DNA from: Moesziomyces globuligerus
Taxonomy: Eukaryota > Basidiomycota > Ustilaginomycetes > Ustilaginales > Ustilaginaceae
Direction of reading: 5' to 3'
Assembly (NCBI GenBank): GCA_030849465.1
Contig: JARVLF010000006.1
Coordinates: forward strand, 744,001 to 808,000
DNA: 64,000 nt
Numbering within the stretch: position 1 is the stretch's first letter; each line of letters starts with the position of its first letter. Below the pieces are notes generated by a model. It was not told the DNA's origin, did not search any database, and worked only from the letters and a program-made list of their open reading frames with translations. Below are positions 5,985 to 37,654 of this stretch, piece by piece. The translations under genes and the position numbers were made by a program.

Positions 5985-8900
5985 ATGGACACGCAGGACC
6001 TACGCTCCTTTGACACGGCTCGTTCCATGCAGGACCCAACACGACCACTGGAGCCAGCTGCAGCACCTTCCGGTTCACGCTCGCCGTCCGCGCACAGCAC
6101 CGCATCGACAGAAAGGCCCACAGAGACACAGAACGATCGAGCCGCCTCGCCCAATCCTGCACCTTCCGTCGATTCCAATTTCTCCAGCGTGCAGGGAAAG
6201 ATGGCCGGCACTCCCCCCGACACAGAGCAACCCACCGATGCGGACGACACGGTCAGCTCCATATGGGATCAATCTGATGCGGAGAAGCACGACGCTGCCG
6301 CCACGCCCCGTGCAAGCGTGGCTGCACCGTCATCTGCGTCCACTCGCCCAGACTGGATGACGGACGACCTAGATGAGTCGTGGCCCGAAGAAGAGAACGC
6401 TTCAGCAGCAACGCCAGTACCTGGCCCCAGCAATGCTGACCGGACTGACACCATCGACCTAGCCGCGCCTGATGCGGAAGCTCAGACGCGAGCCACGATC
6501 CAAAGCGAAGTTCCTGCCACGCCTGTGGTCACCGCCCGTCCTCCCATGGTCACAAAGCTTGGCGCTCTTCCCGACCCCGCTTTCTCCGCAGCTCGGCATC
6601 AAGCACGTCGAGCATTGCTCAAGGGGCGAGCTTCCGCCGCCGCCGCCACTGCTGCCGCGCCCACGCCTACAACAAATGCACAGAGGCGAGTGTTGCAGGC
6701 CGGACCGTCCACCACTTCTTTCCGCCTGCCCAGCCACCAGAACAGACGTGCCCGCCTCTCGCGCAGTGCGCCACAGAACGACGAGGGCGACAGCACAATA
6801 TGGTCCGAGTCCGACTCTGAGTCCGACTCGGCTTCGTCCGGCTCGGCTCAGGACGACTTTGCCAGCGCTCGCGGATCGCTCGCCGAGAACTCGCGAATCA
6901 CCAACGTCCAAGAACAGCAACCATCCCGGAATGCATCGCACCAGCCTCCACGCTCGCCGTCGGCTGCATCGGACGCCTCGGGTGCAAAAGGCACCTTCAT
7001 TCACAGAGCAGACGTGTCCTCGCTTCCACCTGTGCTTCGACCCGTGTGGCAGAGTCCAGCCAAGGGTCAGAATGCGCAGCACCGCAAAGGGATCAGCGCG
7101 CTCGGTGGCGACATTTTCACCCCCATGCGTCTGCAGACCATGTTCAAGACTCCCACGCCTCCGGATAGGCCCATGCTCAACATTATGGCTGCCATCGCCG
7201 CGGACCCCGCAGTGCAGGCTTCGCCCAGCCCGCAGGATGCCGCCGAACAGCTAGGAGCAGAGGACCAGCCACAGGGAGAAGAGCGGACCGAGAACGAGGC
7301 GGCTGCTCCATCATCACAGACAGCTACGCCCTCTCCTGAGATCCACGCAGAGGCGCCACCTGCTCAGGCGCTCAACGCCGGCGTCCCTAGCTCGGCGTTC
7401 ACGTTTCAAAGCCCGCACGCATCGGTGCAAGCGCCAACGCAAGCCTTCCGCGGCATGGTACCGTCTCAGTCGCTTCAGAACATGCAGAGTCTGCATCCCA
7501 ACCACATGCATGCCTCGGTGCTGGCTCGACCCGCTTCCGCCGCAGCCGATCTCGGCCTTGCCTCGCCCGCTCTCCCGGGTAATGGCGCCAGCTTGCTCTC
7601 GGGTCCCCCGACACCGCACACTCCCATGCGTCTGTTCAAGTTCAACTACGACGATGCGGTGACGCGCGCCAAGTTGGAGATGATGGTCAACGAGCGTACG
7701 CCTGCGCCTGTCGAACAACCGATGCGTGCGGGAGAGATCGAGCGCGAACGCAAGAGGCTTAGGCTAGACGTTCGCCCGCGCAAGGTCATCACCGGCGATC
7801 TCATGTCTATGCCCACCCTCGCTGATCCTTCGCCTGCACCGTACACTGATCTGCAAGCGCAAGATCCTGCGTCCAATGGCCAGCCTGTCGTCGACTACGT
7901 CAAGGAGTCGACCGATTTCATGAGCGCGCTCCAAGATGCGGTCAGGACGCACTCGCCACCGCGCGATCCTTCGCCAGAATGGGCAACCGAGGAGGACGAG
8001 GCGAGTAGTGCGGAACGGCGCCAGGTCTCGTTCCACCAAGGTAAGACCGATGCGGCTCAGACCCCCAATGGCTCCTCGCCAGCGCGGCGCAGACGCTCGT
8101 TTGGACCGAGCCACAGGTCGCTCGTGTCTCCGGCCCGCGACGACGTGATGCCCTTGCAAATGGATCACGGAAGTCCGCAGCGCATCTCTTCGCGAAGGCT
8201 TCCGGAGGACTCGTCGTTCATCACCGAGTCGAGTTCAACCGACATCCCCATGTCGTCGACGCTCAAGTCGCGTGCCTCTCTCTCGCGCCGCATCGCTGAG
8301 CAGGTCAAGGCGACCGAATCGCCGCGCAAGCTGCTGCGCCGCATCAGCGCAGCTGCAATCGCTGAGGACGAGGTGGAGCAAGAGTTTGATCAACGGCCAT
8401 CCCAGCCGGGAGCGATTTTGGAACTGGTCACGCCGTCGGAAGATGCGGTGGCGTATCGCGACCAGCAGATCCGTCAGCTCGAAGAACGTATTGCACGACG
8501 CCGACAGCTATTCACCCCGGCAAAGTCCAGCGCACGTGCCGAGGAAGCGCACGAAGATCCCCTTCGCACGGTGCAGAGGCCGCAGCTCATCACGCTGCAC
8601 GAGCCGACCCTTGATGTGATTGCGGCGCAGCATCGCGAAGATGACAGCGACGTCTCGGACGAAGAGTCGCGCATGGACAGCGACGCACAAGGACTTGGGC
8701 AGCACGACGGCAATACGCGCCGGTTCCAAGACGGCATCGTCCTGTACGATTCCGAGCGCATCCCAGATCCGCCGATCCCCGAACCGACGAGGATGCTCCG
8801 CAACATCGCCTCGGCGGTGGAGCTGCGTGGCCGCAATGTGGACCGAGCGAGCATGGCGCGTGCGACCTCGCTGCTGGCCCTGCCGGCCCAGCCTGACGCG

Positions 8901-33513: not shown

Positions 33514-34394
33514 ACACGAACAGCGATGGGATGACCCTGCGACGAACACTTCAACCCACACATTCGCAATTGTGCGCCCCTTCATCTGCAGCCTGCCCTG
33601 CAAGCTTCAAGGCATTCCTGCCTCCCGGCCTGCGACGATCCACCCATGCCCATACCCACCTGACGGAATGAAATCTCTCCTGCAAAGTCGAGTACCTCCT
33701 CCCGATTCCCGGCTTGACCAGCTTGCATTCTTGTGCCCCTTCGGTCGCATTTCGGCATGTAAGTGCAGCGCTTCGATCCGGCGGTTGTGATTGCGCTGAG
33801 CTTCATCGCGGCGTTCCGGGTCGATAACGGCTTGAGCATTGAAGGGAGGGATGCCGTGCGACGACCGTGAGCGCATCTCATCTGCCGAACGGATGCAGCC
33901 AGAGAAACCACGCATCCACCCGAATGCAATGGGGTCGACATCGATGGCAAAGCGCATGCATATCATGTCCTATTGTCATTCCAGTCCTTGTTTTTCGCCC
34001 ACTTCTACAGGCTCAACCGAGATACAAGCCACTTATGAAGCATCAGTTGGAGCACAGCGGCCTCAAGTGGGGTCCCACCAGGCGACCCCTCTCTCCTAGT
34101 CAATACTTAAAGGACACACCCACTAGCGCCCTTTACTGAGCCTACCATACGTTCCATTCGCTTCTCCTCGCTGAATTCTCCCCGCCGGATAGTCTGCTAG
34201 CCAGACATCGAAACATCACAGTCATTTCAGCCTCTTTCTTGATCGTTCTATTCCCATTTCACAAGCAGAGGCTATTGGTACGTACACGATGACGATACTC
34301 GCGCTCACGTGAAGTTGCGCTGACGAGGACCGGATGATGATTTCTCTCTGCAGGGTAGCGTCAACTCAAGCGCCAAAACTCTCACAGTTGGGCG
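33514..34394. promoter_or_regulatory. Upstream region of the secreted precursor gene
   Basis: 881 bp holding the IQM-like 3' UTR and the promoter and leader of the next gene. A TATA-like ACTTAAAG lies at 34105-34112, about 285 bp before the ATG, and a probable leader intron at 34278-34353. Base composition is more A/T-rich than in coding sequence. Confidence 0.45.
34278..34353 (+). other. Probable 5'-UTR intron of the secreted precursor gene
   Basis: GTACGT donor at 34278, GCTGACGA branch-type sequence near 34319 and a pyrimidine-rich TTTCTCTCTGCAG acceptor ending at 34353 give a 76-bp intron, 41 bp before the start codon. This matches the size and signals of the coding introns in the gene. 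Confidence 0.6.
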
Positions 34395-37300
34395 ATGAAG
34401 GTGGCTCTCCTCTGCGCCATCGTCTTTGGCGCCGTTTCGGTGGCCGCTTCCGCCTCGGTTGCGGTTGACCCGGACTACCATGTGCAGCTTCATCGTCGCC
34501 AGCGTTCTTCCGCCCCCGCTCCCAAGAAGCGGGACGTGCAGAAACGCGATGCTAGTGTCAATGCCCGAAGTGCTACGCACTATGGACGTGAGCTAGAGCG
34601 TCGTGACGAAACGGAACTGCTCAGAGCAGCTGCCGGACTGTTGGGCGGCAGCGGCAAAACTGAAGCTGCCGAGGCGGGTCGGACTGTGATCCACAACCAC
34701 GTCTCGCCCTTCCCGCACGAAGTGCCCGGTGGTGCTGGTGGTTACGCCCATCAGATGCCGGGTGGTGGCGGCTACGCTCATCCCCAGTACTTTGCTCAGT
34801 CGGGAGGCGTGGATGCCGCTACGGCCGCCAAGCTGGAAAAAATCCAGAAGCACCTGGGCAAGCTCAAGGACAGCAACAAGCACAACGCCGAACAGATCGC
34901 GCTCATGCAGGAGCTCCAGGCCAAGCAGCTCGCCGGAGCTAACCCTGGCGTAGCTGCCGCCGCTACCGGCAACGTCAAGCGAGGCGGCATCGGCAAGGGC
35001 TGGATGGCTGCCGGTATTGTCGGTGGTCTTGGTCTCGGCTACGTCGGCACAAAGATGTTCGACACCAAACCCGCCGACACCACCACCGGATACAGCCCCT
35101 CCGAGATGGCCGCTATGCAGGCCGCTGGTGCGGCCGCTCCCGGTACGATGCCCGTCGATGGCGGCGCAGGCGCTTACATGCCTGTTTCTGGCGGTGCGGC
35201 CGGTGGTGCGCCCATGCCGGATGCCGGCGCCGCCGGAAGCCCATACAGCATGGCTGGCCCGAGCGCTGCCGGAGGTGCCTACCCCGCTGGTGGCGTCGCT
35301 GGCGGTGCCGCAGGTGGTGCCACAGGTGGTGCCGCAGGTGGTGCCGCAGGTGGTGCCGCAGGTGGCTCGACCCAAGCTGGCGCTGGTACTCGACCCGTCT
35401 ACGACCCCGAGGTTCAGATGTACTATGTGATGGGCCCCGGCCAGGGCGGACAACAGATCAGGTACTACATCGATCCAAGCAGCGGCTACTTGATCAACTC
35501 GGTCAACTTCGATGTCAGCGACCCCAAGACCGGTCAGATTGTTCAGTACGGCAGCCAGATGGGTGCTGGTACTAGTGCTGGTGCTGGTGCCCCTGCCGGA
35601 GCCGGTGCTGGTGCAGGCGCTGGTGCCGGTTCGGGCGCTGGTGCTGGAGCTGGTGCGGGCGCTGGTACTGGTGCCACTACTGGCGCTGGTGCTGGAGCAG
35701 GCGCTGATGCTGGTGCCCCTGCTGGCGCTGGTACCGATGCCGGAGCTAGTACTGGCGTCGCTGGGGCCAGCTCCGGTGCTGGCTCTGGACGCCTGACGAA
35801 GCGCTCGATCCGATTTCAAAAGGTATGAAACCTTCCGGCTCTATCCTTTCCATCTGCAGCGGGCTGCCAGCCCTGTCAGTCTCAGCGGTTGATCAGCGTA
35901 CTCCCCGTCTGTATCGACATCGCGACTCTACGATCCCATTCATTTTTCAATGTCACGTTTCTGATGACTTCTTTGTATGAACACGCTGTCTGTCGTCTCG
36001 GTGTACAGGTCAACAAGAGGCAATTCTCCAACGCCGCGCTCTAGTGAGTACTGCGCCTCTAGCTCCGTTCTCGATGCAAGCCTAGACATGCTGGGTCGCA
36101 CTTTGCTGACACTTCCGTGTCCTCCCTTCAATAGTGCTGACAATCCGCTTTTGAGGGAGCAAGCACGGCTGGCCATGGCAGGCGGTGGTAACAATGCCGC
36201 CAATGTCGCCAAAGTTGGCGGCAAGGGAGCAATGATCGGCAAGATCGCTCTCGGTGGCACTGCGCTCATTGCGACGATCTTCGCACTCGACATGTATGCC
36301 CATCCCAAGCGAAAGGGCGTGACTGAGAGCAACCCCTACGGCCTGACCCCCACCGCCATCTGCGACCAGTACTCGCAGCCGATCATCAAGGACTTCCGTG
36401 GAATCCTGTGGAGCAAGTCGACCTACTCTCGCCTCGACATGAAGAACCTTCCTCCGCTGCACATGTGCTCAGACCAAGAGCTTGCAGATGCCGGTGTTTC
36501 GGCCAATCCTGTTGGCCTTGGCGGCCCTGGCGGCATGCCAGTAGCGAAGCGCAGCCTTCCCAAGTCGTCGGAGGTAAGTCCGTCCCCTTTCTTAGACTCG
36601 TGTCTCGATGCACATGTCGAAACGTTTTTCGCTGACTCATGGCGACGCTCGTCATTCCGGACAACAGAGCGAGCTGTCCGATCTGTCCGCTGTCGTTAAT
36701 AAGGATGTAGAAGCTCAAGTTTTCGACAAGCGCACTGATCACGCAGACGTCAGCGAAACCGCCATGGACGAGATCCTGCAAAAGCGAGCCGTGCACGAAG
36801 AAGCTCCTGCCCTGGAGGAGCGACAGGGCAAGGCTGCGGCGGCAGCAGGAGCTGCAGGAGCAATGGCCTTCGTTCCTAGCCTCGGCATGGGAAGCGTGCT
36901 CGCCGTTGGAGCTGCAGCGCTGGTCACCACTATCTATCTGCACAATATCCACGTTGCGAAGAAAAAAGCCCTGCTGGCCGACTGGAACAGCAAGTTCCAC
37001 TCGGCAGGCGAGGCGGCTGGTTCGGTGGGCAATGCGATCACGACGGGCGCCAACGGCCAGCTTTTCAACCCGATCACGGGCGACCTTGTCCTCGTCGACC
37101 CCAACACGGGCCTCTACTACGACTCGGGATCAGGAGAGCAGGTGAACCCCAAGACGGGCATGCCGTTCCGATATGGTGGTGGCGGCGCCAGCGACTCTAA
37201 GAAGGGCGATTCCGGATCAGCCCTCGACCAGGTCAAGACGCAGCCTTTGCCGCTGGATGCAAACGGAGCCATGTCGAGCGAGTCCCCCGAGGTCCAGAAG

Positions 37301-37654
37301 GCGATGGCGCAGTGGAATGCCATGACACCTCAGCAGCAGCAAGAGCTGTTCCAGAAATACGGCAGCACCGCCTCGCAGATTCTCAACTCGCCCGACCCGA
37401 ATGCAGCGCTCCAGCAGTGGAGCAGCAGTCAGACGCAGCAGATGCAGCAGCAAATGCAGGCTTCCCTTCAGCAGCCCCAGTACTCTCCTCAACAGCCTCA
37501 GTACGACCCTCAACAACCGCAGTACTACCCTCAGCAGCCACAGTATGCCTCGCAGCAGCCCGGCTACTCGACCGGAGGCGGCATGGGGGGTGGCATGGGT
37601 GGTGGCCGCGGAGATGTTGCTGCTAATGCCGGCGGAGGAGGACCTGTGATGTGA
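34395..37654 (+). CDS. Secreted multi-module precursor with KR (Kex2-type) sites, silk-like GA tract and PQQPQY tail
   Basis: The predicted four-exon gene has exons 34395-35822, 36009-36043, 36135-36573 and 36668-37654, encoding 962 residues. Introns of 186, 91 and 94 bp have GTATGA, GTGAGT and GTAAGT donors. Residues 1-20 are a signal peptide. KR or KKR sites lie near 46, 51, 196, 470, 480, 627, 656 and 674. Three Gly/Ala-rich hydrophobic segments, possible membrane spans or glycine zippers, lie near 198-218, 516-541 and 690-728. Residues 390-465 are GA-rich with a silk-like GAGAGS pattern. DPxxG turns occur near 337-380 and 768-797, and five PQQPQY-type units lie at 902-934, then GGGM repeats. 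No known family is recognised; KR-cleaved repellent-type or cell-wall precursors are the nearest general concept. There are only two Cys after the signal peptide. Confidence 0.8.
35301..35360. repeat. 12-bp tandem repeat (GGAA codons), five units
   Basis: Five units of GGTGGTGCCGCA with one or two substitutions each, encoding Gly-Gly-Ala-Ala (one unit Gly-Gly-Ala-Thr). The near identity at DNA level suggests recent slippage or unequal exchange inside exon 1 of the secreted precursor. Confidence 0.85.
35562..35786. repeat. GA-rich codon tract, silk-like
   Basis: GGTGCT/GGAGCN codon pairs encode alternating Gly-Ala with occasional Ser, Thr, Pro and Asp over about 75 codons. Third positions vary, so the repeat is older or more diverged than the 12-bp array upstream. 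Confidence 0.8.
37469..37567. repeat. 18-bp degenerate repeats encoding QQPQY units
   Basis: Five consecutive units of about 18-21 bp encode QQPQY or QQPGY separated by one or two variable residues (SP, DP, YP, AS). They form the Gln/Pro/Tyr-rich tail of the secreted precursor. Confidence 0.8.

What the first reader, a model, noticed from the sequence alone, without database searches (positions are those of the whole stretch)
35823..36134. A 35-nt microexon acts as an all-or-nothing gate between two halves of a secreted precursor
Exon 1 ends in phase 0 at 35822. Keeping intron 1 gives one more codon and then TGA (35826-35828). Skipping the 35-nt exon joins exon 1 to TGC TGA, a stop after one codon. 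Including the microexon but keeping intron 2 gives a TAG split across the donor (TA|GTGAGT). Only removal of both introns with microexon inclusion yields the 962-residue form; every alternative gives a protein of about 476-487 residues ending shortly after the KR site at 470. This could be a splicing switch between a short GA-rich product and a longer polyprotein, or simply tight selection for NMD of misspliced RNA.
Basis: partly seen in the sequence, partly recalled or inferred. Interest (0 to 1): 0.75.

Follow-up and report, generated by a model that had tools for sequence, protein, structure and literature searches.

The report
Conserved stop inside a splice donor
A smut-fungus gene for a large secreted precursor has an intron whose first six bases hold a stop codon, and six relatives appear to carry a stop at the same place, so an unspliced message would end at the seam between two halves of the protein; whether the short product is used or is only a safety stop is not known.

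Summary
Exons 34395-35822, 36009-36043 (35 nt), 36135-36573 and 36668-37654 encode 962 aa; keeping intron 1, skipping the microexon or keeping intron 2 gives 477, 477 and 487 aa. The three stops are not equal. The intron-2 stop is the ordinary result of a GTGAGT donor in phase 2. The exon-skip stop cannot exist at that place in 3 of 4 full-length relatives, nor the TA|G split in 3 of 4. The intron-1 stop differs: six relatives' N-terminal records (P0014-P0019) end at the same column as the window's retained frame, S[ILV]R..[KQT]V, so intron position and a stop at its second codon look conserved at 38-49% identity (relatives' DNA not seen). Intron 1 is 186 nt (3n), and the donor TGA is its only frame-0 stop. 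The microexon peptide with its second KR is conserved too. So the long form is real, and the gate is the intron-1 donor, not the microexon. Most likely it is a fail-safe stop for unspliced mRNA; a working short product remains open. No RNA evidence was available.

The parts
34278..34353 (+). probable 5'UTR intron, 76 nt, GTACGT...GCTGAC...GCAG
   Evidence: read; canonical donor, branch-like motif and acceptor; no RNA
34395..35822 (+). exon 1: signal-peptide-like start, several KR/RR sites, Gly/Ala-rich stretch, ends in phase 0 after ...[12 protein letters not shown]
35799..35804 (+). KR at residues 469-470, last dibasic site in exon 1; KR in the 5 full-length proteins, KY in P0016
35823..36008 (+). 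intron 1, 186 nt (3n), phase 0, donor GTATGA, branch-like CTGAT about 45 nt from the acceptor
   Evidence: position inferred to be the same in 6 relatives
35826..35828 (+). TGA inside the intron-1 donor, second codon of the retained intron, its only frame-0 stop
   Evidence: records of 6 relatives end at the same column
36009..36043 (+). microexon, 35 nt: [11 protein letters not shown] + TA of the split Tyr-488 codon; carries the second KR (479-480)
   Evidence: peptide aligned without gap in 4 of 4 full-length relatives
36044..36134 (+). intron 2, 91 nt, phase 2, donor GTGAGT, branch-like CTGAC about 26 nt from the acceptor
36042..36044 (+). TAG formed across the intron-2 donor; the donor would give TGA in the next codon in any case
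   Evidence: phase-2 effect described in PMC2911113 (passages)
36135..36573 (+). exon 3: hydrophobic segment at residues 521-539, conserved YAHP and NxYGLxPT motifs
36138..36140 (+). TGA read only if the microexon is skipped
   Evidence: impossible at this place in P0001, P0003 and P0004
36574..36667 (+). intron 3, 94 nt, phase 0, GTAAGT...GCTGAC...ACAG; no stop inside it in frame if retained
36668..37654 (+). exon 4: borderline hydrophobic stretch near residues 690-729, conserved GANGQLFNP...[12 protein letters not shown] stretch, Q-rich tail, stop
   Evidence: weak OCRE-like match below the Pfam cut-off

Best explanation
One gene with four coding exons encodes a secreted, Kex2-type precursor whose main product is the spliced 962-residue form. 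Intron 1 lies in a short linker between two KR sites ([12 protein letters not shown]). Being 3n long and otherwise open, it would keep the frame if retained, except that its own 5' splice site carries TGA as the second codon. Shown: the gene model by sequence, the otherwise open 3n intron in this genome, and seven sequences whose unspliced exon-1 frame ends at the same column. Inferred: the relatives' donor stop, and that selection keeps it so that unspliced or slowly spliced mRNA ends translation at the module seam, giving a clean N-terminal fragment and exposing the mRNA to nonsense-mediated decay. The 35-nt microexon is an ordinary small exon carrying the second KR.
For: Six relatives' N-terminal records end at the same column. 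A close pair shows it is an intron: P0003 reads RHRQ-LGKR in its annotated protein, its 87%-identical relative P0014 ends RHRQV. The donor TGA is the only frame-0 stop in the window's 186 nt (the shuffled remainder stays open in 14.6% of trials, so openness alone is not remarkable). A stop at donor +4 to +6 occurs in 0 of 20 other predicted introns. Genome-wide pattern counts, both strands: AG|GTATGA 0 (reversed control 7), AG|GTATGT 8 (3), AG|GTAAGT 38 (4; one donor counted twice, and this gene's intron 3 among them). Retention made up 114 of 193 alternative splicing events in a U. maydis EST study (PMC2219887, passages), and intron-boundary stops with NMD of unspliced transcripts are described in Yarrowia (PMC2911113, passages).
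Against: Any stop within the intron would serve NMD, so keeping it at exactly codon 2 in all seven is more than a fail-safe needs. A 477-residue truncated product could be stable. In Cryptococcus, a section heading says the intron-retention level is mostly independent of NMD (PMC5006051, passages). No RNA was seen; the relatives' intron lengths, donor letters and other stops are unknown.
Confidence: 0.45

Rival explanations
1. Regulated two-product switch: intron 1 is kept in some cells, giving a secreted N-terminal protein ending S[ILV]RHR[KQT]V (SIRFQKV in the window), while splicing adds the second half with hydrophobic, possibly membrane-spanning segments. The stop is kept because the exact C-terminus matters, and the unusual donor because the choice is regulated.
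For: Both alternatives look conserved: the exon-1 end with its stop in 7 of 7 and the microexon peptide in 4 of 4. Donor GTATGA is rare in the genome, and the branch-like motif of intron 1 lies farther from the acceptor (about 45 nt) than those of introns 2 and 3. The long form adds hydrophobic stretches in exons 3 and 4 that the short form lacks; that in exon 4 is borderline. By eye, the exon-1 tail is well conserved within a fast-changing region.
Against: No transcript or protein evidence. The tail also encodes the linker of the long form and the exonic part of the donor, which could conserve it alone. V is forced by any GT donor in phase 0. The CTGAT branch motif is not in itself weak: it is the only or the nearer motif in 4 of the 20 other predicted introns. 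P0016 has KY instead of KR just before the tail.
Confidence: 0.3
2. No selection on the stop as such: the ancestral donor happened to hold a stop and has been kept by splicing constraint or slow change.
For: Splice donors are constrained; one inherited state explains all seven without repeated events. At 3.17% by shuffling it is not an extreme ancestral accident.
Against: Exon-1 proteins are only 37-61% identical in 54 of 55 pairs, and the window's donor departs from the commoner GTAAGT and GTATGT, which splicing constraint would favour. At intron 3 the one relative that seems to read through (P0005) has V-R where the window has V-S, by eye, so donor letters can change there.
Confidence: 0.2
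3. Two adjacent genes: a 477-aa secreted protein and a separate downstream gene, with no splicing between them.
For: One NCBI record (P0016, U. loliicola) ends at the short form. The hydrophobic segment of exon 3 could in principle serve as a membrane anchor of a separate protein (not tested).
Against: The microexon peptide with its KR and AA residues is conserved and colinear in four annotated relatives; P0003 and P0014 show an intron at the junction.
Confidence: 0.05

Closest known systems
Intron-boundary stop codons and NMD of intron-retaining transcripts in Yarrowia lipolytica (PMC2911113; passages read)
   Same: Stops arise from the 5' splice site itself (phase-2 GTGAGT/GTAAGT), exactly the case of intron 2 here; 3n introns, stop-free ones above all, are under-represented.
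   Different: The key stop here is in a phase-0 intron through a rare GTATGA donor and seems kept at one codon across relatives.
Intron retention in Ustilago maydis (PMC2219887; passages) and isoforms in U. maydis, U. hordei and S. reilianum RNA-seq (PMC5414199; passages)
   Same: Smut fungi; retention is the main form of alternative splicing in the EST study; retained introns had more degenerate sites.
   Different: This gene was not named in the passages I read; no expression data for it here.
Peroxisomal isoforms made by alternative splicing or stop read-through in fungi (PMC4207609; passages)
   Same: One fungal gene, two C-termini.
   Different: Those add targeting signals to enzymes; the read-through motif TGA CTA is absent here (TGA AAC).
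Kex2-processed repeat proteins (KEPs); smut Hum3 and Rsp3 are mentioned there (PMC7329392; passages)
   Same: Signal-peptide-like start and many KR sites.
   Different: Segments between KR sites are of unequal length (5 to 288 residues) and, by eye, not tandem repeats.
Microexons in basidiomycete P450 genes of Phanerochaete chrysosporium (PMC1184071; passages)
   Same: Exons of a few to about ten codons in a basidiomycete.
   Different: Different genes; no conserved stop is mentioned in those passages.

Membership tests
KEP (Kex2-processed repeat protein) | ER signal peptide | tested here: inconclusive
   hydrophobic N-terminus (6-24 in the window, 3-21 in P0001-P0004) by hydropathy only; no signal-peptide predictor was run
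KEP (Kex2-processed repeat protein) | at least 3 tandem repeats of at least 8 aa between Kex2 sites | tested here: not met
   KR-bounded segments are 46, 5, 145, 274, 10, 67, 80, 29, 18 and 288 residues (the call prints 289 for the last, counting the stop) with unlike sequences by eye; the published detection program was not run
Intron with donor-embedded stop (Yarrowia type) | stop codon formed by the 5' splice site in the exon's frame | tested here: met
   introns 1 and 2
Intron with donor-embedded stop (Yarrowia type) | unspliced mRNA accumulates when UPF1 is removed | not testable with these tools
   no RNA data
Functional alternative isoform by intron retention | conserved stop position and exon end across relatives | tested here: met
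   7 of 7 sequences reaching the exon-1 end, stop inferred in 6; P0020 set aside because its frame departs earlier
Functional alternative isoform by intron retention | retained transcript or short protein observed | not testable with these tools
   no RNA or proteome data at hand
Stop-codon read-through (TGA CTA type) | TGA followed by CTA | tested here: not met
   TGA AAC at 35826-35831
WW or OCRE domain protein (WW is the name in UniRef for P0002-P0004) | curated Pfam cut-off reached | tested here: not met
   window protein: OCRE 14.9 bits against 24.7, no WW match at E <= 1; 5 of 5 members match OCRE at E <= 0.5, best 5.8e-05, and WW is not among the 6 families listed; whether a relative reaches the OCRE cut-off is not shown

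The most novel reading that the evidence does not exclude
A stop codon built into an unusual 5' splice site has been kept across the smut fungi so that one gene makes two secreted products: a Gly/Ala-rich module ending S[ILV]RHR[KQT]V when the donor is not taken, and a longer Kex2 precursor with extra hydrophobic modules when it is. The splice donor would then be at once splice signal, stop codon and product terminus.
Probability: 0.28. Interest if true: 0.72.

Novelty: new variant of a known kind. Interest (0 to 1): 0.42.

Why it matters
Stops in retained introns are usually taken as by-products. One that seems to keep its exact codon in a rare donor, among proteins only 37-61% identical in 54 of 55 pairs, lets one ask directly whether fungi conserve donor-embedded stops for decay or for a second product. 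It may also explain why one NCBI record (P0016) holds only the short half, and it gives a simple test on existing smut RNA-seq data.

Tried and rejected
Microexon as the gate: rejected, because its two specific stops are not conserved. Paralogue in the genome: besides the gene's own three pieces only a weak match to the Gly/Ala-rich stretch, E 1.2e-4 on contig C8. Stop read-through: motif absent. Larger second exon from acceptors 35870-35885: in frame, but the 41- to 46-residue insert is absent from 4 of 4 full-length relatives. Relatives' DNA: one scan each of genome contigs and viral contigs with P0001 found none, so the relatives' donor letters are inferred from the record ends, not read. 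Likeness of a motif in the two halves ([16 protein letters not shown]): profile comparison 18.5% probability, E 0.0013, left open. Structure of the exon-4 part: mean pLDDT 52.2, not searched further. PDB by sequence: 2 matches at E <= 1, best 0.011, not taken as meaningful. Papers naming P0001, P0003, P0004 or P0016 by locus tag: 0.

Limits of the searches: the three protein searches each scored only the 7992 to 7996 candidates sharing most words, so relatives may be missing; no absence in any species is claimed. Weak points of the null: 20 introns from my own unvalidated gene finder, of which several look false (e.g. donors GTCGGC, GTTTCG, GTGGGG), and only 6 of the 20 are in phase 0. The pattern counts cover only short introns with CTRAC and CAG, which intron 1 itself does not fit; the two GTATGT matches on C2 and C21 are near-identical; GTATCA gave 0 with control 0.

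Full report
What is there. The window lies in an 18.5-Mb, 24-contig genome, and the protein relatives found that bear names are from smut fungi; window GC is 61.8%. The gene reads: exon 1 34395-35822, exon 2 36009-36043, exon 3 36135-36573, exon 4 36668-37654, 962 residues (my first border for exon 3 was one base short). Introns are 186, 91 and 94 nt in phases 0, 2 and 0. A 76-nt 5'UTR intron is probable. The protein begins with a signal-peptide-like segment, has KR pairs ending at residues 46, 51, 196, 470, 480, 547, 627, 656 and 674, a Gly/Ala-rich stretch, and hydrophobic stretches at about 521-539 and, borderline, 690-729. Pfam gives only a sub-threshold OCRE match and one weaker match for the window protein.

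The stops. Retained intron 1 gives 477 aa, skipping gives 477, retained intron 2 gives 487. Alternative acceptors in intron 1 (35870, 35879, 35885) and in the microexon (36017) would give in-frame proteins of 1008, 1005, 1003 and 959 aa, so the claim that every alternative truncates is too strong; the four full-length relatives show no such change.

The spliced form is real. Four full-length relatives (P0001-P0004; U. hordei, S. scitamineum, P. hubeiensis, K. brasiliensis; 46-49% identity) run through the microexon without a gap: [12 protein letters not shown] (window) / FHKRSYEQAALY / HDKRSYTAAAFQ / LGKRVYPSAAYQ / LEKRQYSTAAYK (the last residue is the split codon). K479, R480, A485 and A486 of the microexon, and A489 at the start of exon 3, are invariant in the five. 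I take these records to be gene predictions; their introns were not seen.

The intron-1 stop looks conserved. A profile search with exon-1 sequences (scoring the 7992 candidates sharing most words) returned ten proteins: three of the full-length ones, six that end at the end of exon 1 (P0014-P0019), and one (P0020) whose frame departs earlier and was set aside. The six end RSVRHRQV, RSLRHRKV, YSIRHRQV, RSIRHRTV, RSLRHRKV and RSIRHRKV; the window's retained frame ends RSIRFQKV. V is what any GT donor gives in phase 0, so the information is that the intron lies at the same codon border and that its second codon is a stop. The stop is inferred: six records ending at one column are not explained by contig ends, but their DNA was not seen. 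P0003 (annotated protein, RHRQ-LGKR) against its 87%-identical relative P0014 (ends RHRQV) shows that this is an intron. P0016 is an NCBI record, U. loliicola, that ends there; just before the tail it has KY where the others have KR. Exon-1 proteins of the six are 38-49% identical to the window, and 54 of 55 pairs among eleven are 37-61% identical, so unconstrained sites should have changed.

Is that unusual? A shuffled intron 1 puts a stop at codon 2 in 3.17% of trials. Among 20 other introns predicted by my own gene finder in 264 kb, none has a stop at donor +4 to +6, though only 6 are in phase 0 and several look false. Genome-wide patterns with AG|donor, CTRAC and CAG at short spacing gave, on both strands, GTATGA 0 (reversed control 7), GTATGT 8 (3), GTATCA 0 (0) and GTAAGT 38 (4). 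At 3.17% per independent lineage, four lineages give about 1e-6; the true number of independent lineages is unknown, and inheritance of one state is the main alternative.

The other two stops are not conserved. With the residues that relatives have at the same places, and assuming the same exon-3 border, the exon-skip stop is impossible in the first two codons in P0001, P0003 and P0004 and possible in P0002 only with Ala GCT followed by Ser AGY; the TA|G split is impossible in P0002, P0003 and P0004 and possible in P0001. Intron 2's donor GTGAGT in phase 2 gives TGA anyway, as described for Yarrowia (PMC2911113, passages read), and 3 of the 4 other predicted phase-2 introns here also stop in the donor.

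Why keep it? Intron 1 is 3n long and its donor TGA is its only frame-0 stop; a shuffled remainder is open in 14.6% of trials, so openness itself is not remarkable. In this genome the TGA is thus the only thing that keeps a retained intron 1 from staying in frame. That fits the under-representation of 3n introns, stop-free ones above all, reported for Yarrowia (PMC2911113, passages); that decay cannot see such introns is the inferred reason. The stop also falls between two KR sites. Against a pure fail-safe: any stop in the intron would do, yet the codon is the same in seven. The rival, a working short product, fits the exact position and the rare donor; the branch motif is distant but its letters, CTGAT, also occur in 4 of 20 other predicted introns. 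Nothing shows that the short form is made. Retention made up 114 of 193 alternative splicing events in a U. maydis EST study (PMC2219887, passages); isoforms were reported for about 11, 9 and 7% of genes in U. maydis, U. hordei and S. reilianum (PMC5414199, passages).

Verdict. The finding is a real gene structure, correctly read. The microexon is ordinary. The element that looks conserved is a stop codon inside the first donor. I put 0.45 on a fail-safe, 0.30 on a two-product switch, 0.20 on inherited chance or splicing constraint alone, 0.05 on two genes. The species was not identified by any search; a Moesziomyces-like smut is my recollection from genome size and GC only.

Noticed in passing
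window 36574-36667; P0005: Intron 3 has no in-frame stop when retained; P0005, from an unnamed 1710-base contig, appears by eye to read straight through it (KVRCSSRVPVGKSAVTHGDSCCSPQ), so retention there would only insert residues.
   Followed up: partly
window 36135-36141 and 36159: Exon 3 begins TGCTGAC right after the acceptor, the same letters as a common branch motif of this genome's introns and of intron 2 just upstream; a weak GAG acceptor ending at 36159 would allow in-frame skipping of the microexon (942 aa).
   Followed up: partly
window 35570-35790: Silk-like GAGAGAG stretch near the end of exon 1; other Gly/Ala/Gln-rich, quickly changing sequence stands there in relatives.
   Followed up: no
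window 35460-35550 and 37060-37180: Similar motifs [13 protein letters not shown]...VSDPKTGQ and [23 protein letters not shown] in the two halves hint at an old internal duplication (profile comparison weak).
   Followed up: partly
P0003 and P0014, residues about 530-625: These two proteins carry an extra KR-bounded copy of the YYID..TG module before the exon-1 end.
   Followed up: no
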